This document shows positions 9,598 through 25,791 of a stretch of DNA of 64,000 nucleotides, one piece after another. Below the pieces are notes generated by a model. The model saw only the letters and a program-made list of their open reading frames with translations. It did no database searches and was not told where the DNA came from. The DNA is taken from positions 1,888,873 through 1,952,872 of the forward strand of contig NZ_CP017074.1 of assembly GCF_001717465.1 (NCBI RefSeq), given 5' to 3'. Origin of the DNA: Luteimonas sp. JM171. GTDB lineage: Bacteria; Pseudomonadota; Gammaproteobacteria; Xanthomonadales; Xanthomonadaceae. The first letter of the stretch is position 1. The number at the start of each line of letters is the position of its first letter. The translations under genes were made by a program, and so were the position numbers.

Positions 9598-10266
9598 TCA
9601 GGACTCCGGGATCACAGCGGTGAACCGCCCCTCCCGGACCCGCAGGATCTTGTCGTCCCTGCGGGGTGCCTTGTTGATCGAGGCTCCTTCCATGAGTTCA
9701 AGCTCGAACCGGCCAGTCACCTGGCTTGCGTCCACGTGATCGATCACGAGCTTTCCTTCCAGTCCGTGGCCCTTCCACTCCTCGGGCATGTCGTACTCCA
9801 GCGCCACGTTCGCGTAGCGCCCTCCGCGGTTCTCCATGATGTCCATGAAGTGGGCGGTGAAGCCGCCGGCGTAGCCGCGGGAAGCATCGGTCTCCGAAAC
9901 GATCGGGTACTCGCCGGGAGACGGCACACCTCCGGTCTCCGACATGGCCTGCAGCCGGAGACTGTAGCTCTGCTCCGATTCAACACGGCTGTCCGCTATG
10001 TTGATGACGAACAGGTGACCCCGCGAGTGTTCGAACTGTTGAACCCAGGCGACACCTTGATGCTCCGCTTCCAGTACGCCGGAGGCGGTGAACTCGACCT
10101 CGGGGGCGCCGTCGGTGGCAATGTCCGGGTCCTCGTTCGCGTCCACGGCCATGCAAGCCTGGCATGACAGGAGCGTCGCCAGCATGATGGCCCGACCGGC
10201 AGCGCCGGCCGGAGAAGTCGCGCCTGGGTGGCGCGAAGGCTGCAGCCACTCCCGCACGGACCTCAT
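9598..10266 (-). CDS. putative lipoprotein, paralogue 1 of 3
   Basis: Function unknown. The 222-residue product has a hydrophobic N-terminal segment (AIMLATLLSCQAC) with candidate lipobox cysteines at 35 and 38, then a beta-rich acidic domain. Its C-terminal half (LEGKLVIDHVDASQVTGRFELEL) resembles in pattern the ends of the two upstream lipoproteins, suggesting divergent paralogues. The start overlaps the stop of the upstream gene by four bases. It is the last gene of a leftward operon headed by the adhesin gene, and ends 16 nt from lspA. A weaker signal sequence than its neighbours makes the lipoprotein call moderate. Confidence 0.75.
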   Translation of the reverse strand: MRSVREWLQPSRHPGATSPAGAAGRAIMLATLLSCQACMAVDANEDPDIATDGAPEVEFTASGVLEAEHQGVAWVQQFEHSRGHLFVINIADSRVESEQSYSLRLQAMSETGGVPSPGEYPIVSETDASRGYAGGFTAHFMDIMENRGGRYANVALEYDMPEEWKGHGLEGKLVIDHVDASQVTGRFELELMEGASINKAPRRDDKILRVREGRFTAVIPES

Positions 10267-10904
10267 GGCTGGCCTCCCGAGCCGCTGTCAAGGATGTCCT
10301 GCAGGACATCGTCGCTGGCCACTTCGCTGTTGAAGCTGCCTTCGAGCGGGGAGCAACCTTCATCCGCCCCGGTGGCCGAGCCGTCCGGGCACAGGAAGCC
10401 GCTGAATCGTCCTTCGACGTGTCCGCCCCGGCTGTCCAGCTCGATCCGGTTCCATTCGATCTCCAGCTCTTTTGCCTCCAGCAGCGTCCCGCCCGTATAG
10501 ACGAACAGTTCGTGGCTGGTCACGGTGTAATCGTCTCCCTGCGACATCAGCGTGGCCGAGAGCGTCGCCTGCCGGCTGCGGTCTTCCGCCGCTATGCCCT
10601 GTAGCGACAACAGCATCATCGGCCCCTGCGCGGCGATGCTGGCAGAGGGCCGGCGCAGCTCATCGCCGGGCACACCGGCAAGGATCTGCCAGGAGGACTC
10701 CCGGCCATCCACGCGCGTGACGAGCTCGCCCATCGTGGGCCGGGTGCTGGATGCAGCATTGGCGCTGGCGGCGGGTGAGACCGGTGGCGTGTCGCTGGTC
10801 GACATGGCATTCGCCGGGTCCTCGCCGGTTCCGTTGCTGCAGCCGGCAAGCAGGAGCAGGGCCAGGGCCGCGGTGGCCTTATGGATGACGCAGTGGTTGT
10901 TCAC
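10263..10904 (-). CDS. putative lipoprotein, paralogue 2 of 3
   Basis: Function unknown. The 213-residue product has a clear type II signal peptide with lipobox LLAGC (C22), a low-complexity Ser/Ala/Pro linker, then a domain with IEWNRIELDSRGGHVEGRF and two cysteines (FLCPDGS and DEGCSPLEG) that could form a disulfide. WNR-hydrophobic-acidic-LD followed by a cysteine pair is shared with the protein at 10941-11513. It probably sits in the outer membrane. It is cotranscribed with both neighbours, with 36 nt upstream and a 4-nt overlap downstream. Confidence 0.85.
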   Translation of the reverse strand: MNNHCVIHKATAALALLLLAGCSNGTGEDPANAMSTSDTPPVSPAASANAASSTRPTMGELVTRVDGRESSWQILAGVPGDELRRPSASIAAQGPMMLLSLQGIAAEDRSRQATLSATLMSQGDDYTVTSHELFVYTGGTLLEAKELEIEWNRIELDSRGGHVEGRFSGFLCPDGSATGADEGCSPLEGSFNSEVASDDVLQDILDSGSGGQP

Positions 10905-10940
10905 GCAGGTTCTCCAGGGTGGTCGGTTGGGGTGCGGGGA

Positions 10941-11513
10941 TCAGGGGTCTATCCCCAGGTGCGGGTTCCGTTCCAGTGGGGCACTGAGCTCGCCCTGGAC
11001 CTGGTGGCACCGGGTCTCGTACTCGAGTGGGCCGGTGTAGTGGTCCACGCACACGGGAACATCCAGGAAGACGGAGGCGTGGCCGGTGCCCTTGTCCACG
11101 TCCAGGTCCATGCGGTTCCAGCGGATTCCGCTGTTGTCGTCATCCGCAGCGCGCGGCCCCACGCGCTCGAAGATGGTTCCGCTGTCATCGCGGTATGTCA
11201 CTTTCTGGTTCAGAAAGACCGGTTCCGAAGCCCCGCCCAGAAACGTTGAGTGCACCTCCACGTAGCGATCTCCGTGGTGGGCGCGAAGCTTTACGGCCGT
11301 GGCCACGCCGTGGCGGTTGAATTGGGCGCCGGCTCTGGTTCCGGTCTCGGCGGAACCCGCCGGAATGCTCCAGGGCCCGTGCTCGCCGTCGATGCTCAGG
11401 GCGGTCCCGCCGGTTGCGCTCTGGTTGCAGCCCGCCAGGATCGCGGCCAGTAAACCGGTGAGTCCAAGCGTCCATGTAAAGCGTCGCGTGTTGGCCTGTG
11501 CCGCGTTGGTCAT
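10941..11513 (-). CDS. putative lipoprotein, paralogue 3 of 3
   Basis: Function unknown. The 190-residue product has a lipobox LAGC (C29) after a hydrophobic stretch. Its domain ends IRWNRMDLDVDKGTGHASVFL, followed by two cysteines (VPVCVDHY and TRCHQVQGEL), matching the pattern of paralogue 2. I chose the ATG at 11513 because GGAGA lies about ten bases upstream; a longer reading to 11549 adds a basic extension with no support. It follows the adhesin gene by 59 nt on the same strand, so the lipoproteins may accompany or mature the adhesin. Confidence 0.85.
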   Translation of the reverse strand: MTNAAQANTRRFTWTLGLTGLLAAILAGCNQSATGGTALSIDGEHGPWSIPAGSAETGTRAGAQFNRHGVATAVKLRAHHGDRYVEVHSTFLGGASEPVFLNQKVTYRDDSGTIFERVGPRAADDDNSGIRWNRMDLDVDKGTGHASVFLDVPVCVDHYTGPLEYETRCHQVQGELSAPLERNPHLGIDP

Positions 11514-11572
11514 GACTGTGTGTCTCCGTGGTTGGTCCGGGGCATGCATCGCGCGGCCCCGGACAGGCTGGA

Positions 11573-13540
11573 TTACAGGTCGACGCCGAAGCCGACGCCA
11601 GCCGAGCGCTCGCTGCCACTGAACGCCGCGCCAAGGGAGAACGACGCGCGCTCGCCGACCCGGCGGCCGTAGCCGACGGAAAGCGCCTCGCGCCCGCCCT
11701 GGACACCCGCGCCCACCGCGATCCTTCCGCGCTCCGAGCGGCCCCCTGCCGCGTTGATCGCCATGTTCAGCATGGCCGCGCTCATGGCGCCATGGCGGTC
11801 GATCCGGCGGTCCATGCGTTCCATCTGATAGCTGATGTCGTCGAACCGGTCCTCGAGCAGGTCCATGCGATCGAGCATCGCGGTCGGGTCGAAGCCGGCG
11901 ACGCTGGCGATGCGCTGGTCGGTGTAGCGGTTGGCCGAGGCCAGAGTTGCCGCGTCTGCGGTCTCCATGTCGCTGCGCACCGCGCCCTCCCGGTCGTCGG
12001 TGTAGGCATTCGCAGAAGACAGGGTGGCGGCGTCAGCGGTTTCCATGTCGCTGCGGATCTCGACCTCACGGCTGTCGGTGTAGTCGGTGGCGGTGGCCAC
12101 CGCCGCGGCGCTGCCCTGGACGATGTCGGCGCGGATCGCCGCCTCGCGCGTGTCGGTGTAGGCATTCGCGGAGGACAGGGTGGCGGCGTCAGCGGCCTCC
12201 ATGTCGCTGCGGATCTCGATCTCACGGCTGTCGGTGTAGTCGGTGGCGGTGGCCACCGCCGCGGCACTGCCCTGGGCGATGTCGGCGCGAATCGCCGCCT
12301 CGCGCGTGTCGGTGTAGGCATTGGCCGAAGACAGGGTGGCGGCGTCAGCGGCCTCCATCTGCCGCAGGTTCACGGCATCGGTGGCCTGCACCGCGTCGGC
12401 CACGTTCGCCAGGTTGCGCTCGGCGCCGGCCGCCCCGATCGACACGGTGTTCGCGCGATCGGCGACGCTGTCGGTGCCGATTGCCACCGAATCGTCGGCG
12501 TGGGCGATTGCCCCGTAGCCCATCGCCACGCTGTTGCTCCCATGCGCTTCGCTGACGAAGCCCATCGCCAGGCTCGAATTCCCTGCCGCGGTGTTGCGGT
12601 AGCCCACGGCGGTGGCGAACTCGCCATCGACCACGTTGTTGGAGCCGAAGGCGCTGCCGGCACCGGCATTGGTGGTGTTGGAGAAACCTACCGCGGTGGA
12701 GGCATCGCCAGCGGCCAGGTTCTCCCGCCCCAGGGCGGTCGCGTGGGCACCGGACGCGGTGTTCTCGTGTCCGTACGCCGATGCATTCTCGCCGGTAGCC
12801 TGATTGCTGCGCCCCACTGCGGTGGAACCCGCTGCGGAAGCCTCATTGCTGCTGCCCAGGGCGGTGGACCAGTTGGCGGTGGCATGGTTGACGATGCCCA
12901 CTGCGGTGGCATTGGCGCCCGAGGCGATGTTCATGTTGCCGAGCGCAGTGGAACCGACGTTGTTGGCCTCGTTGCCGCGGCCGACGGCGGTGGATGCCCG
13001 GCCGGCCAGGTTTCCCGAGCCGACAGCGGTTGCATTCTGATCGGAGGCCACGTTGCGGTCGCCTACTGCAGTGCTGCTTTCGCCGGCAGCCTGGTTTTCC
13101 CTGCCGAGCGCGGTGGACGAAAGGGAAGACGCCACGCTTCCATAGCCGATGGCTGTCGCATAGTTGGCGCTCGCCTCGTTGAAGGCGCCAAAGGTGGAAG
13201 CGGTGTTGGCGGTGCTTTCGTTGGCTATGCCGACCGCGAGGGCACCGCCAACGGCCAGGTTGCCCAAGCCCAGCGCCGTGGCGGAATTTCCAGTGGCCTC
13301 GTTGTTGCGGCCGAACGCCATGGAATAGTCCCCCGAGGCCTCGTTGTCGACGCCGCAGGCGACCGCGCCGTTGCCGTCCGCGGTGCTCGGCGTTCCGCCG
13401 TCCATCTCGCACACGTTGCCCGCGTGGGCCGTGGTGGCGGTCATCGCCAGCAGCAGGGCGGTGATCGAAGCGGCCAGGGGGGCGATGGTGCGGACGCGCG
13501 CCGGACGGCGCTTGGCGCTGGTATCAGATTTGCACTGCAT
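11573..13540 (-). CDS. trimeric autotransporter adhesin (YadA-like)
   Basis: Trimeric autotransporters (type Vc) form surface stalks that bind host or other cells. The 655-residue product has a long signal peptide (likely cut after AHA, residue 40) and a head of many ~14-residue Hep/Hag repeats of the type STALGxxNxAxGxxATAVG. A neck (NTVSIGAAGAERNLANVADA, then AVNLRQM) leads to a stalk of six 26-residue repeats. The C-terminal YadA-type anchor ends GVGFGVDL. The start ATG at 13540 has GGAGTG eight bases upstream. The three lipoprotein genes follow. It is divergent from the kinase gene by 170 nt. Confidence 0.93.
   Translation of the reverse strand: MQCKSDTSAKRRPARVRTIAPLAASITALLLAMTATTAHAGNVCEMDGGTPSTADGNGAVACGVDNEASGDYSMAFGRNNEATGNSATALGLGNLAVGGALAVGIANESTANTASTFGAFNEASANYATAIGYGSVASSLSSTALGRENQAAGESSTAVGDRNVASDQNATAVGSGNLAGRASTAVGRGNEANNVGSTALGNMNIASGANATAVGIVNHATANWSTALGSSNEASAAGSTAVGRSNQATGENASAYGHENTASGAHATALGRENLAAGDASTAVGFSNTTNAGAGSAFGSNNVVDGEFATAVGYRNTAAGNSSLAMGFVSEAHGSNSVAMGYGAIAHADDSVAIGTDSVADRANTVSIGAAGAERNLANVADAVQATDAVNLRQMEAADAATLSSANAYTDTREAAIRADIAQGSAAAVATATDYTDSREIEIRSDMEAADAATLSSANAYTDTREAAIRADIVQGSAAAVATATDYTDSREVEIRSDMETADAATLSSANAYTDDREGAVRSDMETADAATLASANRYTDQRIASVAGFDPTAMLDRMDLLEDRFDDISYQMERMDRRIDRHGAMSAAMLNMAINAAGGRSERGRIAVGAGVQGGREALSVGYGRRVGERASFSLGAAFSGSERSAGVGFGVDL
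11891..12358 (-). repeat. tandem 78-bp repeats encoding the adhesin stalk
   Basis: Six 78-bp units (26 codons each) run from 12358 down to 11891. Alternating units read xADAATLSSANAYTDTRE and QGSAAAVATATDYTDSRE, so the clearest period is 156 bp (unit starts at 12358, 12202, 12046), with a half-unit at 11968. High nucleotide identity makes stalk-length change by recombination likely. Confidence 0.85.
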
Positions 13541-13710
13541 GGAAATCACTCCGTTCGATGAGGTTTGCACAGCCATGGGGCTCTGAACCCACATGTACGA
13601 CGGGTATCGGGGAAAGCTGACATCCCGGCCACGACAGGTCGTTCCCGCGTGCTAGCCTGTGTCACGCCGTCGGGGGTGCTGGTTACGGCAACGAAATCCC
13701 AGGGGGAGTG

Positions 13711-16101
13711 ATGGAGGAGACGGAAGGCTGCCCGCACGCGTGGGCGCTGTTCGATCGCCTGGTGGAGCTGTCGGCCGGGGATCGGCAGGCGGTGCTTGAA
13801 CGCGAGGCGCAGGACCCGGCGCTGCGCCGGGAGGTGAAGGCCCTGCTGTCCGAGTTCGAGCGGATGGGGGAAGAAGCGGAGTGCGCTCCGCCGGAACAGA
13901 CTCTTGCCGCCGGCACCGTGTTGGACAAATGGCAGGTGGAGGCGTTGATCGGCCGCGGCGGGATGGGCGAGGTCTATCTCGTGTCGCGCATCGGCGGCGA
14001 CTTCGAGCAACGGGCCGCGCTCAAGCTGCTGAGCCGGATGGACTCGGCCGAGGAGCGGGCGCGCTTCGCGGCCGAGCGCCGCATCCTGGCACGGCTCGAA
14101 CATCCCGGAGTTGCCCGGCTGCTGGATGGCGGCGAGCACGAAGGTATGCCCTACGCGGTGATGGAATATGTCGAAGGGGCGTCGATCACGTCGCACGCGC
14201 GGGAGCTGTCCCTGCGGCAGCAGATCCTGCTGTTGCTGCAGGCCTGTGCCGCGGTCGAACACGCACATCGCCACCTTGTCGTCCACCGCGACCTGAAACC
14301 CGGGAACATGCTGGTCGACACCCAGGGCAGGCTGCGCCTGCTGGACTTCGGCATCGCCAAGCGCCTGGCCCCGGATCGCACGGGCGGGGACGGAGCAACC
14401 CAGGTGATCCGCGCCTCGCCGGACTACTGTGCGCCGGAGCAACTCAGCGGCGAACCCGTCTCGACTGCAACCGACGTCTACGCCTTGGGCGTGATCGCCT
14501 TCGAACTGCTGACCGGGGAACGCCCCTGGAAGCTCGGGGGCTTGCCCATCATCCGGGCGATGGACCGCCTCCGCACGCAGGAGCCGCCGCGCCCCAGCGC
14601 GCGCCTGGCCGGTGCCCGCCGCAGGCTGGTTGCCGGTGACCTCGACAGCATCGTGCTCAAGGCGCTGCAGACGCGACCCGAGCGCCGGTACGCCACCATG
14701 GGCGCGCTGGCCGACGACCTGCGTGCCTGGCTGGACGGCCGGCCGGTCAAGGCACGCGAAGGTACATGGGGTTATCTGGCGCTGCGCGCGCTCCAGCGCC
14801 ACAAGGTGGCGGCCGGGCTGGGTGCCGCGGTGCTGCTGAGCCTGACCGCAGGCCTGGCCGCGACCGCATGGCAGGCGCGCGAGGCTGCGCTTGAGCGCGA
14901 CATGGCCCGCCGGGAAGCAGCGCGCAACCTGGCGGTGTCCGACTACCTGTCCCTCATGTTCCGCACGGCCGGCGAGCTGGAAGGCACCGCCGACGTCACC
15001 GCCCGGATGGTGCTGGACCGGGCGGCGGAGCGCCTGCACGAAGAGTTCTCCGACTCCCCCGAAAGCTATGCCGACCTGTCACTGGCATTGGCTGAGCTGT
15101 ACCTGCAGTTGAACGACTACGCCGGTGCGCGCCCGCTGCTGACCCGCCTGCTGGAGCAGCCAGGCGTGCCGCCCGGGCAGCGCGCGATGGCCCAGCACGA
15201 CCTGGCCCAGCTGCGCTTCCGCGACGAACACCAGGCCGACGCGGCCTCGCTGCTGCGCGAGGCCCAGGCGTTCTGGGCCACCGACCCGGGGCGCTACCGC
15301 GACCAGCTCCTCGACAGCCGCCTGTTGCAGTCGCAGATCGAGTTTGCCGACGGACAGGCCGAACAGGCGCTGCTCACCCTGACCGACGCGCTGCCTGAGC
15401 GGGTGGAGCTGTCCGGGGCCGGGCACCGGGATACCGCCGTGCTGGTCAACAACATCGGCAACGCGTATTTCCGGCTTGGCCGGTTCGAGGAGGCCATTAC
15501 CCATTTCCAGCGAGCCGACGCGATCTGGCGTGCGCTTGGCCGTTCGCGCAGCACCGATGCCCTCAATACGCTGAACAACTGGGCGGGGGCGGAGTATCGC
15601 CTGGGGCGCATCGAACAGGCCGTCGGCTTGTTCGAGCGGGCATTGGAGCTGCGCCGCGAGCTCTACGGTCCGTCCGCGGCCATGGCCGCCCTGCTCAACA
15701 ACCTCGGCAAGGCGCTGTTGCAGTTGCAGCGCCACGACGAGGCGATCGGGTTGCTGCGCGAGGCGATCCGGATGGGCCGCGAGCACGCCGGGGGTGACAC
15801 CAGCACTGTTGTGTTGTCGGCGGGGATGGGCCTGGTCGATGCGCTCGTACTGGCCGGCGATCAGGCGCAGGCGCGCAGCGAGCTGACGTGGCTGGAACCG
15901 GCGGTGCACGAAAGCCGCGGGCCGGAACACCTGCTGGCGGGGCTGCTGGGCATCTCGCAGGCGCGCCTGCTGCACGCCGAGGGCCGGACCGGCGAGGCGC
16001 GCGAGCGCCTGGCGTCGACCCGTGCACACCTGGAAAGCCTGGGGGCGCCCGCCACCGGTGCGCTGGCACAAGTGGCCGAGCTTGAGGCGTCAATCCTGTA
16101 G
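13711..16101 (+). CDS. membrane Ser/Thr protein kinase with extracytoplasmic TPR region
   Basis: A Hanks-type kinase of 796 residues. The cytoplasmic catalytic domain has GRGGMGEVY (near 82-89), lysine ALK (105), HRDLKPGN (192-199), DFG (212-214) and APEQ. One membrane segment (about 366-387) is followed by about 400 residues of TPR-like helices (LNNIGNAYFRLGRFEEAITHF, LLNNLGKALLQLQRHDEAI). This layout suggests a sensor outside and a kinase inside. GGGGAG precedes the ATG; a GTG at 13708 would add one residue. It overlaps tail-to-tail with the ECF sigma gene. By analogy with PknS-EcfK of Xanthomonas citri and PknT-EcfP of Vibrio, it probably activates that sigma factor. Confidence 0.9.
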   Translation: MEETEGCPHAWALFDRLVELSAGDRQAVLEREAQDPALRREVKALLSEFERMGEEAECAPPEQTLAAGTVLDKWQVEALIGRGGMGEVYLVSRIGGDFEQRAALKLLSRMDSAEERARFAAERRILARLEHPGVARLLDGGEHEGMPYAVMEYVEGASITSHARELSLRQQILLLLQACAAVEHAHRHLVVHRDLKPGNMLVDTQGRLRLLDFGIAKRLAPDRTGGDGATQVIRASPDYCAPEQLSGEPVSTATDVYALGVIAFELLTGERPWKLGGLPIIRAMDRLRTQEPPRPSARLAGARRRLVAGDLDSIVLKALQTRPERRYATMGALADDLRAWLDGRPVKAREGTWGYLALRALQRHKVAAGLGAAVLLSLTAGLAATAWQAREAALERDMARREAARNLAVSDYLSLMFRTAGELEGTADVTARMVLDRAAERLHEEFSDSPESYADLSLALAELYLQLNDYAGARPLLTRLLEQPGVPPGQRAMAQHDLAQLRFRDEHQADAASLLREAQAFWATDPGRYRDQLLDSRLLQSQIEFADGQAEQALLTLTDALPERVELSGAGHRDTAVLVNNIGNAYFRLGRFEEAITHFQRADAIWRALGRSRSTDALNTLNNWAGAEYRLGRIEQAVGLFERALELRRELYGPSAAMAALLNNLGKALLQLQRHDEAIGLLREAIRMGREHAGGDTSTVVLSAGMGLVDALVLAGDQAQARSELTWLEPAVHESRGPEHLLAGLLGISQARLLHAEGRTGEARERLASTRAHLESLGAPATGALAQVAELEASIL

Positions 16102-16722
16102 CGAGCCCGCGTCCGGCGTGTGCTGGTCCCGTATGGAGCGGGGTGCTTCGGCGTCCAGCGCATTGCGCAGCCATGCCCGTGCCTTGACCCAGTCCCGCCG
16201 GACGGTACGCGTCGTAACGCCGAGGATCCGGCCGGTTTCCTCGTCGGTGTATCCGGCGAAGTAGCGGCACTCCACCACGCGCGCCAGCCGGGGGTCCACC
16301 CGCGCCAGGGCTTGCAGGGCATCGCCCACCGAAACGCACACTTCGTCCGGGGCTGTCCAACCGCTTCCAGGCGGTGCGTCGGCCTGGATCGCGCACTCGT
16401 CCAGTGGCACATGCGCCGCGCCTTCGCCCCGGCGCAGGCGCAGCCGCGAGCGGGCCCGGTCGACCAGCACATGGCGCATGGCCACCGCGGCGGCGGTGAG
16501 GAAGTGCCGGCGGCTTTGCCAGTTGCCGCCGCGCGCCAGCTTGATATACGCCTCGTTGATCAAGGCTGTGGTCTGCAGCGTGCTGTTGCAACTGACCCGG
16601 GCGCGCACGCCGTGGGCGGCGCGCTTGAGATCCGGGTAAAGCTGCCGCGCCAGGGCTTCGGCGCTTTCACACAGCTCCGCGGTGTCGACGGCGTCCGGCG
16701 CCCGATCGGCTGGTCCTTCCAT
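16090..16722 (-). CDS. ECF sigma factor, kinase-associated type
   Basis: A 210-residue ECF sigma factor: sigma2 around residues 25-95 (LQTTALINEAYIKLARGG) and sigma4 at the C-terminus (YTDEETGRILGVTTRTVRRDW, a helix-turn-helix). Most ECF factors carry an acidic DAED-type patch in region 2.2 to grip the beta-prime subunit. Here it reads QTTALINEAY, with T51 and T52 in that place. Family members with this look are activated by a partner kinase, and the adjacent convergent kinase gene (12-nt 3' overlap) is the obvious partner. The ATG at 16722 follows GAGGGGGAAGGAACC. It lies 56 nt after a secreted-protein gene on the same strand. Confidence 0.9.
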   Translation of the reverse strand: MEGPADRAPDAVDTAELCESAEALARQLYPDLKRAAHGVRARVSCNSTLQTTALINEAYIKLARGGNWQSRRHFLTAAAVAMRHVLVDRARSRLRLRRGEGAAHVPLDECAIQADAPPGSGWTAPDEVCVSVGDALQALARVDPRLARVVECRYFAGYTDEETGRILGVTTRTVRRDWVKARAWLRNALDAEAPRSIRDQHTPDAGSLQD

Positions 16723-16778
16723 GGTTCCTTCCCCCTCTGGCCAACGGGGCCATCCTAGCACTGGGTCGGAAGGCCAAC

Positions 16779-17687
16779 CTACCGGGGAACCGCGAGTATC
16801 GCCGCATCGTACGGCTCGCCACCCGCGGCGCGCCAGCGGATCCAGTGTGTCCCGATCTGGTCGTCCAGCACCACCGCGTTGCGCGCCAGCCCCTGCCGCG
16901 CACCTGCCTGGCCCTCCAGATCCTTGTCCAGGATGAACTCGAACCGCGCCGTCGCTGGCTCCATGCGCGGAATCGGCCGCCTCGCGTCCTCGCCGATTGC
17001 CTCGTGCAGGAAGGCAAGCACCGCGGCAGGACTGGCTCCATCCGCCCCTCCGGCCCCGAAGGGCAGTGGTGGCATCGCCGGATCGAGCGGCTGCCAATCG
17101 CCATCGGGCCCGCCGTATGCGTGTGGAGCCAGGCAGGACCGACCCAGGCAGTCCATTGCGCTGGCCTCGGCATCGGCCAGTTCCCGCCGCTGCACGCGGC
17201 GGATTGCCGCCTGCATGCCCTGTACCGGGCCCATCGTGAAGCGGAACGCCACGTGCGGTCCCGTTCCGAAGGCCTCCGGCGGCGCCAGGGGCAGTGCGGG
17301 ATCCATGGTTGCCAGCTCGGCCCGGATGGCCGGGCCAAGGTTGAAGCGCACCACCTCCACGTGTGCCAGCGGTTCGGCCTCTTCGGTTGTGGCCGGAACC
17401 AGGTCGTATCGCACCCGGTAGCGGGCATGGCGGACTTCCGGTTCGCCGGCGTCGACCAGCAGTACCGCGCGGACCGGCGCCGGCAGCTCGGCGTCGGGAT
17501 GGAACACCGAAGCGCCGATGTCGGGGAAGCGCGTGGCATCGTAGTACCCGGGACCGGCCAGCGTGACGGGGTCGACCTCGACGAACCCCGTGGCCTCGCC
17601 GGGGGGTTGCGCATTGGCCAGGGGCGTGCACAGCAGCAGCATCAGTGCCGGGACCATCAGGCCCATGCCCGGCTTGCGCGCGCTCAT
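16779..17687 (-). CDS. secreted protein of unknown function
   Basis: I do not recognise a family. The 302-residue product has a clear signal peptide (LMVPALMLLLCTPLANA, cut after residue 26) and no later membrane segment. It has a YDATRFPDIGASVFHPD region, a long beta-strand stretch (VRHARYRVRYDLVP), and one nearby cysteine pair (AMDCLGRSCLAP). Its ATG overlaps the OmpA-like gene stop by four bases, and the sigma factor follows, so the three probably form one operon. A periplasmic or outer-surface role for the OmpA-like partner is inference. Confidence 0.8.
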   Translation of the reverse strand: MSARKPGMGLMVPALMLLLCTPLANAQPPGEATGFVEVDPVTLAGPGYYDATRFPDIGASVFHPDAELPAPVRAVLLVDAGEPEVRHARYRVRYDLVPATTEEAEPLAHVEVVRFNLGPAIRAELATMDPALPLAPPEAFGTGPHVAFRFTMGPVQGMQAAIRRVQRRELADAEASAMDCLGRSCLAPHAYGGPDGDWQPLDPAMPPLPFGAGGADGASPAAVLAFLHEAIGEDARRPIPRMEPATARFEFILDKDLEGQAGARQGLARNAVVLDDQIGTHWIRWRAAGGEPYDAAILAVPR

Positions 17688-18814
17688 CGGCGCACCAGCT
17701 CGACGCGGCGGTTCTGCTGCCGGCCGTGTTCGGTGTCGTTGCTGGCCACCGGCGTCGCGGCGCCGACGCCCTGCGCGGTCAGGCGGGCAGGCGACACCCC
17801 GTAGCGAACCACCAGAGCGTCCCGGACCCGCTCGGCGCGCCGCTGCGACAGCTGGATGTTCGCCTCGGCGCTGCCGGTGCTGTCGGTGTGACCCACCACC
17901 ATCAGGTTCAACGCGGGTTGATCACGCAGCAGCAGGCCCACCTGTGCCAGCGCCGGATCCGATTCGGCCCGCAGGGTGTCACGGCCGGTATCGAAATGGA
18001 TCCCCTCCAGGGTGACCTTGCCGTCGCGCTCCAAGCCGTCGGCCAGCGCGCTGGCATTGACCGACACCATGCCGGTGTCCATCTGGCTCGTCTCGACCAC
18101 ATGGATCAGTGTGTGAGGCGGGTACACCTGCAGCGAAATGAATGCGGTGCCGTCGTCCTGGTGCAGTCGGCCAGTGAGGTAGCGCTGGTCGCGCTGGTTG
18201 GAAGACTGGAAGCGGCCGATCTTCATCACGCCGCCCAGGGCGACGCCGCGGACGTTGAAGTTCGAGCACGCGTCAGGGCCGGAGCACTCGTATTCGATCT
18301 GCAGGCCGCGCGAGGCCAGCGCGTCCCGGTAGTTGCGGAAGATCTCGAACACCGAGCGGCCGTCCGGGTTGGTGTAGCACAGGCGGGTGTAGCGCCCTTC
18401 GAGGGTTTCGGTGACGTTGAGGCCGTTCTCCTTGCCAATGACGCGGATGGCCTCGTCGTAATCGGAGTATTCCCGGGCGCAGAGTTGCGAACCGGCGTAT
18501 GGGACGATCAGCGGGTGGTCGCCGCCCGGATCCACGCTGGAGGCGGTGCCGGTGCCGGTGCCGGTGCCGCCGGTGACCTCCACCTCGTGGCCCTGGCGCC
18601 GGGCTTCCGCGATACAGCGCTCATCGCCCAGTGCGCAGCGCGTGGCCTCGCGGGTGCGGCGATCGGCCTGGCGGTGGACCTCGCTTTCGGCGGCACGCTC
18701 GATGGTGCGGCCGAGGCGGTCGAGGAAACTCTGGGCCATGGCGTGGGGGGCGGCGAGCCCGAGGGCAATCGCCAGGACCGCGGCGGTCCGGGCGGCGGAA
18801 GGGAAGTATCGCAT
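17684..18814 (-). CDS. OmpA-family outer-membrane protein with DUF4892-like region
   Basis: The 376-residue product has a signal peptide (cut after AMA, residue 27) and a glycine/threonine spacer (GGTGTGTGTAS). A middle region resembles DUF4892 (ASRGLQIEYECSG, VYPPHTLIHVVE). The C-terminal OmpA peptidoglycan-binding domain carries GIHFDTGRDTL, VVGHTDSTGSAEANIQLSQRRA and the terminal RRVEL. It probably tethers the outer membrane to peptidoglycan. The ATG at 18814 has GGAG eight bases upstream; the ORF runs open to 19159, but this start immediately precedes the signal peptide. It is divergent from the metzincin gene by 149 nt. Confidence 0.88.
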   Translation of the reverse strand: MRYFPSAARTAAVLAIALGLAAPHAMAQSFLDRLGRTIERAAESEVHRQADRRTREATRCALGDERCIAEARRQGHEVEVTGGTGTGTGTASSVDPGGDHPLIVPYAGSQLCAREYSDYDEAIRVIGKENGLNVTETLEGRYTRLCYTNPDGRSVFEIFRNYRDALASRGLQIEYECSGPDACSNFNVRGVALGGVMKIGRFQSSNQRDQRYLTGRLHQDDGTAFISLQVYPPHTLIHVVETSQMDTGMVSVNASALADGLERDGKVTLEGIHFDTGRDTLRAESDPALAQVGLLLRDQPALNLMVVGHTDSTGSAEANIQLSQRRAERVRDALVVRYGVSPARLTAQGVGAATPVASNDTEHGRQQNRRVELVRR

Positions 18815-18963
18815 CGAGGCAGCTCCGTTTCGGAATGGCGCCGGCGCCTGTGCCGGTTTGCCCTGCATATACGATGCCCGGGTCCGTTCGCGGACATGGG
18901 TCCGACAACGCCGTGGCTGCGGCACCAGCGCCGCGTGTCCGCGCCAGCGATCGGGCGCCGTAC

Positions 18964-21900
18964 ATGTTCCGGTCCTCCATCGGATACGAACTGGTCGTGC
19001 GCCCAAAACCGATTGCCCTGTTTGCGTTTCCCGTACTGGCCGCGGTGCTGCTGGCCATGTCGCTGGTGGCCGGGTTGGTCCCGGCCAATGTCCACGCCGC
19101 CGATGATCCGGAAGCGGGGCAGGCGCGGTTCGATCGAGACGCGTTCCTTGCGAAGGCACGTGCGCAGGCCAGGGGCGTGAGCGCCGGCTGGACAGGCTCG
19201 GTCAGCGGTGAGTTCGGCCGCTCCCTGGAGGGGACCGCCAGTTTGAAGTTCTTCGAGACGGGCGGCGGCCGGCTCAAGATCGCCTTTTACCTGGGCGATA
19301 CCCACGCGTACTACGACGGGATCCTCATCGGTGGTCTGGTCAGCTGCGGAACCGGGCCGCGGACGTACCCGGTCTGGGTGCGGCGCAGGGCCGGCGAGCA
19401 GCAGCCTCCGGGGCGCCTGGAGGTGTATTTCACCGAATCGCAGGCGATCGCATCGCGGCGGGCCGGGGTCACCCCGGTTCCGCGGGACGACATGTACAAG
19501 CCCGAGTCCGGGACGGTGTCGCTGCGGCTGGAGGAGGATTACCTTGAGGTCGGTCTCGACGCGGTGATGTCCAGCGGCCCCCTCAGCCCGCAGGTGTCCA
19601 CGCCGGCGCGCATCCGCGTGCGGGCACAGGCGCGGGTGGAGCGCACGCTGGAGAACGATGCGGAATTCAGCACCAGCCTGTGCGATGCCCCGCCACCGTT
19701 CGAGATGGTGAAGATCCTGCCGGAGGACGGCCGTGGCAACGTGCTGCTGGAGCGCCCGGAGATCCTGCTGGAGTTCAACCAGGACATCCATCCGCAAAGC
19801 CTGGAGAATCCGGACTTGGTCGTGGTACGCACGAAGCTGAAGGCGTTGGAACTCCGCCAGCCGTGGCTTGATGCCCTGCCGCCCGAGCTGCAGGAACGGC
19901 TCCGCAAGGCGTCATGGGAATTCCCGGCACAAGTGGCCGAACCCGCCCCACCGGGCCACGCTGTCGAGCTGGACTGGACGCCCGAGCACATGGTGCCGGC
20001 AATGGATGACGATGATCCGGACGGCGAGCACGTGCCGGGCACGGTCGACCTGGACGGGCCGCGGACGCTGCGCTTCGTTCCCTCCCGACCGCTGCGCAGT
20101 GGGGTGCGCTACCAGGTGGACGTCGCGCATGGCCCGGGCGGGGTGCGCAGCACGCAGTTCCACGAACTCGACGAGGTGCCACCCAACTTCTTCAGCACGC
20201 GCGTGCGGCCCGACGAGGTGCGAGTGCACGTCTACCAGACCACGCGCGATGCGCCGCTCCTGTTGCGCAAGCCGGCGATGGCCCGGGTGTTCGTGGACTG
20301 GGAAGCGGATCCCGAGATCGACACCGATTGGCAGGTGCGTGCGTACGAGGTCGACCTGGAGATCACCCGCGACGGGCACGAGGGCGTGGTGTTCCCGCAG
20401 CAGACCCACACCGTGCTGCGGCCGGACCAGTACGACGATCGCGACCGGCGCATGGCCGAGGACTCCATCAACCGCTTCGGCTGGTCGCCGCGGGCCCGGG
20501 ACATCCGGCAACTGGTGGCGCGGGTATCCCCGCACGATCCCTGGCCGGGTGCGGGCAGGCGCAAGGCGCCGGAGGATACCGGCGAGCGGTCGGTGGAATT
20601 CGCTTCCTCCCAGGTCGACGAACTCAGCGTGGAGGCCTATGTCGTGCGCCTTTGGAAGTGGCTGGCGCAGCCGCCGGACGCGGGCACCATTGCCAATGTG
20701 ATCAGCGCGTTCCGGCAGGACAACGAGTTCGCGCGTCAGCTGTTCCCGGTGGTCCGGGTCCGGGGCCACTACGGCGGCGTGTTCATGCCGCCCGAGGACC
20801 TGCGTCGCTCCAGCGTTGGCCTGGCTGTGCAGGCGCGAATCCTTCATGACCATGTGGGGCTGCAGTCGGACGCGGACATCGTGGTCGGCTATTACCCGCC
20901 GAACATGCTGGAGGGGCGGGGCCAGGGCATTGCGAAGTACCCGGCCCAGCGGGCGAACGTCGTGCTGATGCCGGTCAGGGCGTCGGACGGCGAGGAGCAC
21001 CCCGCGATCCTGGGCATGCCGCTGGTCACGCATGAGTACGGACACGTGTTCGGGCTCGACCACAATCCATTCGTCAATGACGATGTCGATCGGCAGACGC
21101 ACTGCGGCTCGTTGGCCGCCTACGCGGCCAGTTCCGCGGGCATCGAGGGGTTTCGCATCGCTGCCGGTGGAGAGCATGGATGGAGCAAGTCCAGCGCGAC
21201 GGGCAACGCCCAGGACCCGGACACGCTCAAGGACCTGATGTATCCGTGCGTCTACGATCACCGGGACTGGTGGTGGATCAGCGACAGGGACTACAAGCGC
21301 CTGGTCAAGGATCTGCCCGGGCTGCTCAACGCGCAGCGCGTCCAGCGTTACCTGCGCCACCACGGCCGGCGCCCGCCCGATGTCTCGAGTTCGGTCCTGT
21401 TGGACCGGCCGGTCGCCGCCCCGGCACGCGGCCGCCGCCGGATGCTGGTCTCGGGCACCATCGAGGGTGACCGGGTCCGGTTCATGCCCACGGTCGACCT
21501 GCCGGAGGCGGGCCCCCTGCCGGAGCCGGGCGGTGACCTCACCGTGGTGGTCGAGGCGGCCAACGGAGCACTTCTGGCGACGCGCGACGCGGTCGTGGTC
21601 CGGGACGAGGACGGCGACGCGTTCGCCTATTTCTCCGCGGTGGTGGAGGTGGAGGGTGAACCGGCCCGCATCGCCCTCAAGCGCGGGCGCCAGGAGCTGG
21701 GCGACGTCGCTGCCCGGGTCCCTCCCGCGCCGCCCACGATCACGTCCCACGCAGACGGCGCGCGCCTGGCGCACGGCGACTGGCTTCGCTGGGAGCCCGT
21801 TGATGTCGAAGGCGCACGGTACTCGGTGCGCTACCGGCCCGATCCGGAGGCCTCGCCACGCGTGCTGGCGGCGCTGGTCGATGCCACCGCGGTTCCGATC

Positions 21901-22359
21901 GACCTGGCAGTGCTGCCCGCGGGCGCCTCGCCCACCCTGGAAGTAGTCGCGCATTCAGGCATGCACGAAGCGCGCACCCTGCTGCGGGTGCAGGTGGTCC
22001 AGGACACGCGGCCGATGCTGGTATTCCCCGTGGATGATGCCGCCCCAGTGCATGACGAGGGCATCGGCGCCTGGTTCAACTCCACGCTGGAGGCCGACAG
22101 CGTCGGTGCCGACGCGATCCGGCTGTTCGACGCGCAGGGGCGCGCCATTCCGGTGGATGCCCGGCTGCTGCCATCTGGCGACGGCGTGCACGGGGTCCCG
22201 CGCGAGCCGCTTTTGGCCGGCGAACGGTACACGGTGCACCTCGGGGCCGGCTTGCGCTACGAGGACGGGCGGGTGATGGAGAATCCGGTCCGCTGGAGCT
22301 TCCATGCAGGCGGGGCACGGGTGACGGACGCGCGAGACAGCCCGAAGCAGGTAAAATAG
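18964..22359 (+). CDS. large secreted metzincin-like metalloprotease with Ig-like ends
   Basis: A predicted secreted zinc protease of 1131 residues. After a signal region ([20 protein letters not shown], cut near 45), a Big_5-like domain begins near 241 ([14 protein letters not shown]). The catalytic part carries [11 protein letters not shown] (690-700), the metzincin HExxHxxGxxH zinc site, and a Met-turn candidate LMYPC with M759. A second Big_5-like domain lies near 1010-1120 ([20 protein letters not shown]). I cannot assign a MEROPS family. Starts are uncertain: ATG 18964 or GTG 18997, neither with a strong ribosome-binding site. It ends four bases before ispH. Confidence 0.85.
22352..22357 (+). 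promoter_or_regulatory. possible -10 element for ispH, inside the metzincin gene end
   Basis: TAAAAT ends six bases before the ispH ATG. With normal spacing, transcription would start at or beside the ATG, a leaderless mRNA. No clear -35 is seen. Read-through from the metzincin gene is the alternative. Confidence 0.4.
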
Positions 22360-23342: not shown

Positions 23343-23418
<76 letters not shown>

Positions 23419-24084: not shown

Positions 24085-25791
24085 TCAGGCGCCGGCGATC
24101 GCCAGTCCCCTGCGAAGGCGGTCGGACAGCCGCAGGGCCAGGGCGACGATGGTGAAGGTCGGAAAGGCCCAGCCGCCGGTCGGGAAGACGGAGCTGCCTG
24201 CGACATGCAGGTTTTCCATTCCGTGAACCCTGCAGTCGGGATCGACCACGCCGTCCTCTGCGCGCCCGGACATGCGGGTGGTGCCCAGGTGGTGCGCCGT
24301 GCCGACGAGGGCGGGCTGCAGTGCGGGGTCCCGCACCCACGGCTCGGGCTCAAAGCGCCCGCCGCAGGCCCGCGCGGCCTCTTCCCCGAAGATTCCGGCG
24401 GCAACGCGGTAGGAGGCGTAGTCGAGCTCGGCGACGCGCCAGTCCACCCGGACCCGGCGCATGCCGAGCGCATCGCGGGTGTCGGCAAGGGTGACCCGGC
24501 TGTCAGGGTTGGGTGACTGCTCGAAGTAGGTCATCAGCGCCACGTGGCGATAGGTATCCAGCGGGCGGCTGCGCAGCCGGCGCGTCATCGCCCTCGCCAC
24601 GTGGCCGGCGTTCATGCCGACGCGCAGCAACAATCTTCCGCGCCGGACGCCGGCGGCGGGCGCGCAACCGGCGGCGGCCGGAATACCGGCGTCGAGGGCG
24701 CGTTGCACGATGGTCTCGACGCCCGCCCCGGCGTCATTCGCGGGCTGCCGGAAGCTGGCGCGCAACTCGCGCAGGGCCTGCAGCCCCGCCGGCGTGGAGG
24801 CGGTCACCGGATAGGGCCGTGCGCGTGCGTTGAGCAGCCGCTGCTCGCGCTGCACGTCGTCCGACAGCGCCAGTTCACGGTAGCGCGGGAATTCCTTGCG
24901 CAGTTCGCTGCTGTTATAGGGCCGGAGCAGCGCGTGAAGGTCGCCGTCCACCACCTTCCCGGCCACGCAGCGTGGATGGTCCATGAAATGGCGGCCGACC
25001 TGGTCATGCCGGTTGCCCATCCCGGCCGGATGGATGCCGTCGGACGCCAGCAGCAGCCGCGCGTTTTCGATTCCGCCGCCGGCGAGCACGTAATGGCGCG
25101 CGCGGACGATGCCCCGGCGGCCGGCGAGGTTGCCGATGCAACCGTCCTGCACCCGGCTGCCGCCGGTGTTGGCAACCAGCTTCGTGAGGGTGGCGTGGAG
25201 CAGCAGGGTGATGTTGGCTGATTCACCAAACAGCTCGCGGTACCGGGTCTGGAACTTCACCGGGCTGATGTAGCAGACGCGGTCGACGGTGCTCCCGGTC
25301 CGCAGCGGCAGCGCATGTGTGAATCGACTGTGGTCGAAGCCGCCGTCGCCGATCGTCTGGCCCGCGGGGATACCCAGGATGGCCCGGGCCCGGCCCCACC
25401 ACTGCGCGAGCTCGTCGAATCCGATCGGCCAGCCGCTGGCCGGCACCCAGTCGCGTGGCGACACGTCCAGCCGCGCCAGGGGCACGCAGCCGCCGCCCCA
25501 CAGCCGCGAGCTCCCGCCCACCGCCCGCAGGCGGCACATCGCGGGATCGAAACCCATGGGGCCGACCGGGTCGCCCTCGCTGAGGGCGTGGGTCATGGAG
25601 TCGCTGTCGAACCCCCCGCTTTCGATCACGCAGACGCGGAAGCGGCTGTCGGCAAACGCGCTGGCAATGGTGATGCCCGCCGGCCCGGCTCCGATGATGC
25701 AGACGTCGCACTGGTAGTCATCGGGGGCGGAGGGATCGAGATAGTCGAGGATCAAGAGGCAGTCCAGTCGTCTGCGTACCGCTTGTTGCAA
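24085..25791 (-). CDS. GMC-family FAD-dependent oxidoreductase
   Basis: A flavoprotein of about 568 residues oxidising an alcohol or sugar-like substrate that cannot be named from sequence. Near the N-terminus is the Rossmann FAD motif CDVCIIGAGPAGITIASAF, then GGSSRLWGGGC. The C-terminal GMC domain has GTAHHLGTTRMSG, where the tandem histidines fit a catalytic base, and GWAFPTFTIVALALRLSD. There is no signal peptide. The start is uncertain: TTG 25791 is used here, TTG 25755 is possible, and neither has a good ribosome-binding site. The long ORF to 27183 is antisense to radA and rejected. It is divergent from radA by 90 nt. Confidence 0.88.
   Translation of the reverse strand: MQQAVRRRLDCLLILDYLDPSAPDDYQCDVCIIGAGPAGITIASAFADSRFRVCVIESGGFDSDSMTHALSEGDPVGPMGFDPAMCRLRAVGGSSRLWGGGCVPLARLDVSPRDWVPASGWPIGFDELAQWWGRARAILGIPAGQTIGDGGFDHSRFTHALPLRTGSTVDRVCYISPVKFQTRYRELFGESANITLLLHATLTKLVANTGGSRVQDGCIGNLAGRRGIVRARHYVLAGGGIENARLLLASDGIHPAGMGNRHDQVGRHFMDHPRCVAGKVVDGDLHALLRPYNSSELRKEFPRYRELALSDDVQREQRLLNARARPYPVTASTPAGLQALRELRASFRQPANDAGAGVETIVQRALDAGIPAAAGCAPAAGVRRGRLLLRVGMNAGHVARAMTRRLRSRPLDTYRHVALMTYFEQSPNPDSRVTLADTRDALGMRRVRVDWRVAELDYASYRVAAGIFGEEAARACGGRFEPEPWVRDPALQPALVGTAHHLGTTRMSGRAEDGVVDPDCRVHGMENLHVAGSSVFPTGGWAFPTFTIVALALRLSDRLRRGLAIAGA

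What the first reader, a model, noticed from the sequence alone, without database searches (positions are those of the whole stretch)
9598..22359. 12.8-kb accessory block splitting lspA from ispH: a kinase/sigma-controlled surface programme
lspA and ispH are normally adjacent in proteobacteria. Here they are separated by a trimeric adhesin, three lipoproteins, a sensor kinase, an ECF sigma factor, a secreted orphan, an OmpA-like protein and a metzincin-like secreted protein. Nearly all products carry export signals, and the only regulators are the kinase-sigma pair in the middle. That suggests one signal-controlled envelope or contact response.
Basis: partly seen in the sequence, partly recalled or inferred. 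Interest (0 to 1): 0.78.

Follow-up and report, generated by a model that had tools for sequence, protein, structure and literature searches.

The report
Kinase-sigma switch controlling surface adhesin genes
A block of nine genes, probably acquired from outside, combines a protein kinase and a transcription factor with an adhesin, lipoproteins and a secreted protease-like protein, and three matching promoter-like sequences suggest that the pair switches the surface genes on together.

Summary
The block is real and fills the lspA-ispH gap in this genome only: of 48 same-genus relatives, 41 have a gap of at most 455 nt, 7 carry other cargo, none the block. The "sensor kinase" is a Hanks-type Ser/Thr kinase; the sigma factor is ECF43-type with the QTTA motif phosphorylated in known relatives. 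The likely switch is kinase-activated sigma, as in EcfK-PknS.

Two results support one programme. The adhesin's nearest family relatives lie beside ECF43 and/or kinase genes in 20 of 20 loci, against 0 of 20 hand-picked lower-ranked adhesins and 0 of 63 ispH loci. Related modules carry CTGTCAGT-N15-KCGTGKWTG before surface genes; a derived form, RTGTCMGC-N15-YCGTAYATG, precedes the block's three envelope units. The 2.99-Mb genome has one other match at up to 2 mismatches.

Expression was not tested. The sigma belongs to another ECF43 clade than those of the closest adhesin modules, so adhesin and regulators may have met secondarily. Kinase-activated sigma is known; an adhesin-linked regulon with its own promoter did not turn up in the papers searched.

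The parts
9598..10266 (-). lip1, lipoprotein-like, no Pfam family
   Evidence: lipobox pattern
10263..10904 (-). lip2, lipoprotein-like, no Pfam family
   Evidence: weak similarity to lip3 (BLASTP E 0.001)
10941..11513 (-). lip3, lipoprotein-like, no Pfam family
11573..13540 (-). trimeric autotransporter adhesin (YadA head repeats, stalk, anchor)
   Evidence: 46% identical to the L055 adhesin
13592..13623 (-). promoter-like site P1, ATGTCAGC-N15-TCGTACATG, 82 nt before the adhesin start
13708..16101 (+). Hanks-type Ser/Thr kinase: kinase domain (aa 76-334), one TM segment (nt 14806-14868), TPRs
16090..16722 (-). ECF43-type sigma factor; QTTA motif at nt 16564-16575
   Evidence: TIGR02999 over cut-off
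16779..17687 (-). secreted orphan protein
   Evidence: no family; relatives
17684..18814 (-). OmpA-domain protein with a DUF4892-like N-terminal part (below the Pfam cut-off)
18866..18897 (-). promoter-like site P2, ATGTCCGC-N15-TCGTATATG, about 83 nt before the OmpA-protein start
18935..18966 (+). promoter-like site P3, GTGTCCGC-N15-CCGTACATG, before the metzincin gene
18997..22359 (+). metzincin-like secreted protein with a C-terminal Big_5 domain; [11 protein letters not shown] at nt 21031-21063, LMYP further on (start inferred; ATG 18964 is the alternative)

Best explanation
The block is an acquired, largely self-contained surface regulon. A transmembrane Hanks-type kinase, whose TPR part probably faces the periplasm, senses an envelope or contact signal and phosphorylates the QTTA motif of the adjacent ECF43 sigma factor, which lets the sigma bind RNA polymerase. 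The active sigma then transcribes from three RTGTCMGC-N15-YCGTAYATG promoters: adhesin-lip3-lip2-lip1, OmpA-orphan-sigma (so that the sigma raises its own level), and the metzincin. The output is a more adhesive, remodelled and perhaps proteolytic cell surface. Shown by sequence: gene families, phospho-acceptor motif, shared promoter-like motif and its rarity in the genome, recurrence of this adhesin type with ECF43/kinase genes, lineage-specific insertion. Inferred: phosphorylation, use of the promoters by this sigma, operon structure, the signal, the purpose.
For: ECF43 type: TIGR02999, QTTA, adjacent kinase, with the mechanism described in PMC13147305 and PMC8999054 (passages). Best solved-structure match of the kinase is 9eed_A, a 364-residue kinase domain protein. 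Nearest adhesin relatives: ECF43 in 18, kinase in 19, both in 17, either in 20 of 20 loci; 0 of 20 lower-ranked adhesin loci; 0 of 63 ispH loci. Promoter: a matrix from six sites outside the window finds P1 and P2; the pattern written from P1 and P2 finds P3, expected 0.22, 0 of 100 shuffles with three; in the whole genome one other match at up to 2 mismatches, reversed control none. Minimal motif three times in 64 kb, all at P1-P3; longer form 0 in 1.47 Mb of control loci. Promoter type follows ECF clade in two other module groups. Orthologous sigma loci L029 and L068 have a related site 80 nt before the lipoprotein gene preceding the sigma gene.
Against: No expression data. P1 was part of the set in which the motif was first found. 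In the matrix scan P1 and P2 rank 4th and 9th in the window, and one other exact-spacing hit (62937 +) scores between them. The sigma groups with factors at type II secretion-like loci (L062, L029, L068), not with those of the closest adhesin modules, and L062 has no such site. No motif was found upstream of 67 other ECF43 genes. Secreted genes in general are not enriched around ECF43 genes (p 0.23). lip1-3, orphan and metzincin are not regular members of the other modules.
Confidence: 0.75

Rival explanations
1. Mixed island: the kinase/sigma pair mainly regulates something else (for example type II secretion, as its surroundings in relatives hint), and another ECF43 factor of this genome, such as the one in L229, drives the adhesin and OmpA units.
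For: The block's sigma clades with L062, L029 and L068 beside type II secretion-like genes; the adhesin resembles those of the L055/L218/L229 modules; this genome has a second such module.
Against: P1-P3 differ from the L229-type promoter (CTGTCAGT...KCGTGKWTG) in a shared way; the sigma gene itself lies downstream of P2; L029 and L068, with the same sigma type, have a related site before their sigma units.
Confidence: 0.17
2. The block is a chance pile-up of accessory genes at an insertion-prone site, without common control; the motif similarity is coincidence or DNA copied between the promoter regions.
For: Seven of 48 same-genus relatives carry other cargo at this site. Three copies of the minimal motif in 64 kb is not itself far from the background rate of 1.15 per 64 kb (from 20 in 1.11 Mb). 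The metzincin has one weak relative outside this genome among 149 family genomes.
Against: All three copies lie 30-150 nt before envelope genes in the right orientation, whereas 3 of 20 copies in the ispH loci lie so before a called gene; the longer form is absent from 1.47 Mb of controls; the spacers of P1-P3 differ; the adhesin/ECF43/kinase linkage recurs at other sites.
Confidence: 0.08

Closest known systems
EcfK-PknS of Xanthomonas citri (PMC13147305, abstract and passages; PMC6653060, passages)
   Same: ECF43 sigma beside a transmembrane Hanks kinase; phospho-acceptor threonine in region 2.2; the kinase's best solved-structure match is a 364-residue kinase domain that I take to be PknS(1-364)
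   Different: EcfK controls a type VI secretion system and its motif reads QATE; here the linked genes are an adhesin, lipoproteins, an OmpA-domain protein and a metzincin. PMC6653060 lists an adhesin for the X. citri 306 cluster, so some link there is not excluded
EcfP-PknT of Vibrio parahaemolyticus (PMC8999054, passages)
   Same: Sigma without acidic region-2.2 motif, activated by an adjacent Ser/Thr kinase
   Different: Polymyxin response; STTA instead of QTTA; adhesin or OmpA neighbours not mentioned in the passages read
YadA-type trimeric autotransporter adhesins
   Same: Head repeats, stalk-like region, C-terminal anchor
   Different: This one resembles a subset whose members lie beside ECF43 and/or kinase genes; 655 aa, with 78-nt repeats in the region after the head

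Membership tests
ECF43 sigma factors | ECF sigma of the TIGR02999 / PF07638 type | tested here: met
   165.6 bits against a cut-off of 126.15; PF07638 124.4 against 21.1. That TIGR02999 corresponds to ECF43 is recalled; the ECF43 profile itself was not available
ECF43 sigma factors | Adjacent gene for a Hanks-type Ser/Thr kinase | tested here: met
   PF00069 E 6e-42, gene overlaps the sigma gene
ECF43 sigma factors | QTTA-like motif in place of the acidic region-2.2 motif | tested here: met
   QTTA at residues 50-53; significance from PMC13147305
ECF43 sigma factors | Phosphorylation by the neighbouring kinase activates the sigma | not testable with these tools
   biochemistry needed
YadA-type trimeric autotransporter | YadA anchor domain and head repeats | tested here: met
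   anchor 24.2 bits against 22.7; head repeats 113.8 against 25, 11 stretches
YadA-type trimeric autotransporter | Coiled-coil stalk | tested here: inconclusive
   28.2 bits, just under the cut-off of 28.4
Metzincin peptidase | HExxHxxGxxH and a following Met-turn | tested here: met
   [11 protein letters not shown] and LMYP, both with counterparts in the L056 relative; motif definition recalled
Metzincin peptidase | Match to a peptidase family profile | tested here: not met
   no Pfam peptidase family at E 0.1 and no NCBIfam family at 0.01; archaemetzincin only at E 0.03
Integrative genomic island | Absent from close relatives, deviating composition | tested here: met
   absent from 48 of 48 same-genus relatives; mean GC3 0.84 against 0.92
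Integrative genomic island | Integrase and flanking direct repeats | tested here: not met
   no integrase among the nine genes; no repeat joining the two edges among those listed, 20 of 33 direct families shown

The most novel reading that the evidence does not exclude
Lysobacteraceae carry a spreading family of adhesin-dedicated phospho-sigma modules: each ECF43/Hanks-kinase pair has its own promoter code and switches on a matching set of trimeric adhesin, lipoproteins and OmpA-type proteins. The kinase's periplasmic part, perhaps together with the orphan protein, reads the state of that same surface: a contact-sensing loop in which adhesins are expressed through self-reinforcing sigma activation.
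Probability: 0.35. Interest if true: 0.78.

Novelty: new variant of a known kind. Interest (0 to 1): 0.65.

Why it matters
In the passages read here, the controlled functions of ECF43/kinase pairs were given for two cases (type VI secretion, polymyxin response). This work points to a further target class, trimeric adhesins and envelope proteins, gives candidate promoter sequences that differ between ECF43 clades, and offers a compact locus where sensor, sigma, promoters and outputs lie within 13 kb. Sigma-promoter specificity and adhesin control become testable with simple reporters.

Tried and rejected
Rejected: a histidine sensor kinase (Hanks kinase). Rejected: a block conserved in the genus (absent from 48 of 48 relatives). 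Not supported: general enrichment of secreted genes within 4 kb of ECF43 genes (26.8% against 23.2%, p 0.23). The strong linkage appears when loci are picked by the adhesin's C-terminus. Failed: motif search upstream of 67 ECF43 genes. Uninformative: single-sequence structure models of the orphan (pLDDT 37.7) and lip3 (44.1), so no fold search was made. One search counted the motif at a wrong spacing; one search replaces it.

Limits of the adhesin control: the 20 lower-ranked loci were hand-picked from about ranks 49-150. At least four adhesins of about that range, not in the control, lie within about 6 kb of an ECF43 match by coordinates (G081:C5:868684, G032:C1:1997793, G125:C7:98352, G133:C1:1172585), so 0 of 20 overstates the contrast. 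On a tree of adhesin C-termini the neighbour label is clustered but is not one clade: 7 changes against a shuffled mean of 16.3, 0 of 500 shuffles as low.
Full report
Observation. The window lies in a single-contig genome of 2,992,253 bases. A genome of the same family, G139, has a contig whose length and match place equal those of the named record Pseudoxanthomonas gei, so the family is Lysobacteraceae. On the minus strand adhesin, lip3, lip2 and lip1 follow each other with gaps of at most 59 nt, and OmpA-protein, orphan and sigma likewise (4-nt overlap, then a 56-nt gap), so each set reads as one apparent unit. The kinase gene runs toward the sigma gene and overlaps it by 12 nt. The metzincin gene diverges from the OmpA unit and ends 4 nt before ispH.

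Is the gap abnormal? ispH was sought in 52 same-genus genomes. Apart from this one, 48 have lspA and ispH on the fetched stretch: 5. In 41 the gap is 455 nt or less. In 7 it is 2.4-4.7 kb with other cargo: in L006 a TonB receptor and a PepSY membrane protein by Pfam, in L010, L174, L175 and L185 genes with like-looking starts, in L155 and L156 the PepSY-like gene without the receptor (not profiled). None has the block. The relative with the most similar IspH (95%, L152) has a 93-nt gap. Compared separately with the window edges, that site shares the lspA end and the GGTAAAAT-like stretch just before ispH. The nine block genes have GC3 of 0.81-0.88, mean 0.84, against 0.87-0.97, mean 0.92, in 17 other window genes that I chose (Mann-Whitney p 7e-5). 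There is no integrase among the nine and no edge-joining repeat among those listed. I read this as a lineage-specific acquisition at a site that also takes other cargo in the genus.

The regulators. The sigma factor passes TIGR02999 and carries LQTTALINEAY. PMC13147305 (abstract and passages) states that QTTA is the ECF43 consensus in place of acidic residues that contact RNA polymerase, that an adjacent Hanks kinase is the hallmark of the group, and that PknS phosphorylates EcfK at the matching threonine and in the linker. PMC8999054 (passages) describes the same logic for EcfP-PknT. The window kinase has HRD and DFG motifs, one TM segment after the kinase domain, and TPRs. Its best solved-structure match, 9eed_A, is probably the PknS(1-364) structure; that is my inference from the length.

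The adhesin and its neighbours. I searched 149 family genomes with the last 166 residues of the adhesin and fetched about 9 kb on each side of the 20 best-ranked loci beyond the window and G133:C1:439864, which was already held as L055 and also has the pair. ECF43 matches are present in 18 of 20, kinase matches in 19, both in 17, at least one in 20. Twenty lower-ranked adhesin loci had none, 63 ispH loci none. The 20 are not independent: several share a genome or are near copies, one lies in this genome (L229), and the adhesin control was hand-picked (see Tried and rejected). A common order is sigma, kinase, sometimes secreted or lipoprotein genes, adhesin, with a groEL-like gene beside it in L055, L218, L219, L222 and L223. 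L222, of the same genus, holds sigma, kinase, adhesin and the best match, among the loci compared, to the window's OmpA-protein N-terminal part (9e-70). OmpA-domain proteins also lie within about 1.2 kb of the ECF gene in 6 of the 80 named loci (L067, L077, L103, L120, L125, L132). Relatives of the orphan were found in seven other genomes, leaving out one weak hit in G124: one near adhesin, kinase and ECF genes (L055), one divergent from a TPR kinase gene (L208), one, a partial match, with a kinase match about 3.8 kb away (L212); L210 and L211 have none, and the contigs of L207 and L209 are short. A metzincin relative was found in one other of 149 family genomes (G041) and in none of 184 others of a class sample.

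The promoter. Among 35 adhesin upstream regions (34 from other loci and the window's own) gapped words exceeded shuffled controls. The clearest is CTGTCAGT-N15-KCGTGKWTG, in six loci outside the window, 53-133 nt before the adhesin start; the window's adhesin has the weaker form P1. Exact matches occur in 8 of 255 fetched loci, all adhesin modules; two of these (L055, L200) are one place. In L219, L221 and L223 it also precedes other genes of the module, so it is not only shared ancestry of adhesin flanks. A matrix from the six outside sites, scanned over the window, ranks P1 4th and P2 9th; both have the exact spacing and lie 82-83 nt before the adhesin and OmpA-protein starts; one other exact-spacing hit (62937 +) scores between them, and the three top hits have shifted spacing. 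The pattern written from P1 and P2, with up to 3 mismatches, finds one more site in the window, P3 before the metzincin (2 mismatches; expected 0.22, 0 of 100 shuffles with three). In the whole genome at up to 2 mismatches there are these three and one other, in the gspF-like region; the reversed control gives none. The minimal form TGTCNG-N17-CGT occurs three times in 64 kb, exactly at P1-P3. In 63 ispH loci (1.11 Mb) it occurs 20 times, 3 of them 30-150 nt before one of 986 called genes; in the 20 control adhesin loci 7 times, 2 of them so. The longer form TGTCMG-N17-CGTNNATG, chosen after seeing P1-P3, is absent from these 1.47 Mb. The other fetched loci (3.96 Mb, own genome left out) have no match to the block pattern at up to 2 mismatches. 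L029 and L068, whose sigma is of the same clade, carry TTGTCCGG-N15-ACGTA 80 nt before the lipoprotein-like gene that precedes the sigma gene; L062 has no such site. The orphan relative in L055 has a minimal-form match about 110 nt upstream.

Which sigma reads which promoter? In a tree of 35 ECF sequences five loci with the CTGTCAGT motif (L200, L218, L221, L223, L229) form one clade (99/96); L219 (fragment) and L231 (no ECF on its contig) are not in the tree. Six loci sharing another motif, TGATGGG followed by CGGTT (L217, L224, L227, L228, L230, L232), fall in another clade (100/100) that also holds L225 and L226, which were not among the loci with it. The window sigma forms a third clade with L062, L029 and L068 (100/99), which lie beside genes that I read as type II secretion genes from their sequences, without a profile search. 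Promoter type thus tends to follow sigma type, which supports assigning P1-P3 to the block's sigma. It also means that adhesin and sigma probably met secondarily.

Mechanism and limits. The most likely working is: signal, kinase activation, sigma phosphorylation at QTTA, transcription from P1-P3, surface change, with positive feedback because P2 lies before the unit that contains the sigma gene. The steps from phosphorylation onward are inferred from relatives. The signal is unknown; contact or predation sensing is a guess by analogy with EcfK-PknS. Prior description: searches for trimeric autotransporter with ECF sigma factor, ECF43, trimeric autotransporter, sigma factor, threonine kinase and Xanthomonadaceae, YadA and related terms (12 of 101 listed), ECF classification (8 of 53 listed) and TIGR02999 (8 of 5,150 listed) showed no paper on ECF43-controlled adhesins. 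I saw listings, and passages of PMC13147305, PMC8999054 and PMC6653060. One passage of PMC6653060 lists an adhesin for the X. citri 306 type VI cluster, whose variable region holds EcfK/PknS, so a link there cannot be excluded. The original EcfP paper did not appear in the library, and the ECF reclassification paper is not held under the id tried.

Noticed in passing
window 24088-25650 (-): GMC oxidoreductase-like gene (PF05199 E 6e-23) between the tRNA-Thr gene at 23343-23418 and radA; the codon-based gene caller missed it, so it may be another accessory gene.
   Followed up: partly
L006, L010, L155, L156, L174, L175, L185, between lspA and ispH: Seven same-genus relatives carry a PepSY-like gene there, five of them also a TonB-receptor-like gene: the lspA-ispH gap is a recurrent cargo site.
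   Followed up: partly
L229 (own genome C1:588000-607000): Second sigma-kinase-lipoprotein-adhesin module of this genome, with the CTGTCAGT-type promoter 105 nt before the adhesin.
   Followed up: partly
L217, L224, L227, L228, L230, L232: A second promoter-like motif, TGATGGG followed by CGGTT, before the adhesins of another ECF43 clade.
   Followed up: partly
L062; L195 (own genome C1:404001-424000): A MAG whose type II secretion-like proteins begin almost identically to this genome's has an ECF43/kinase pair just after a pseudopilin-like gene of that locus; in the own-genome stretch no ECF43 or kinase match was seen.
   Followed up: partly
L208 4349-8269: Orphan-family gene divergent from a TPR Ser/Thr kinase gene in a genome of another family, with no ECF match on the stretch: the orphan may be a partner of such kinases.
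   Followed up: partly
window 13649-13655 (+) and 16755-16761 (-): Kinase and sigma genes both have GTGCTAG a short way upstream and no copy of the shared motif there; perhaps a housekeeping promoter element, but the sigma-70 consensus scan found none in the block.
   Followed up: no
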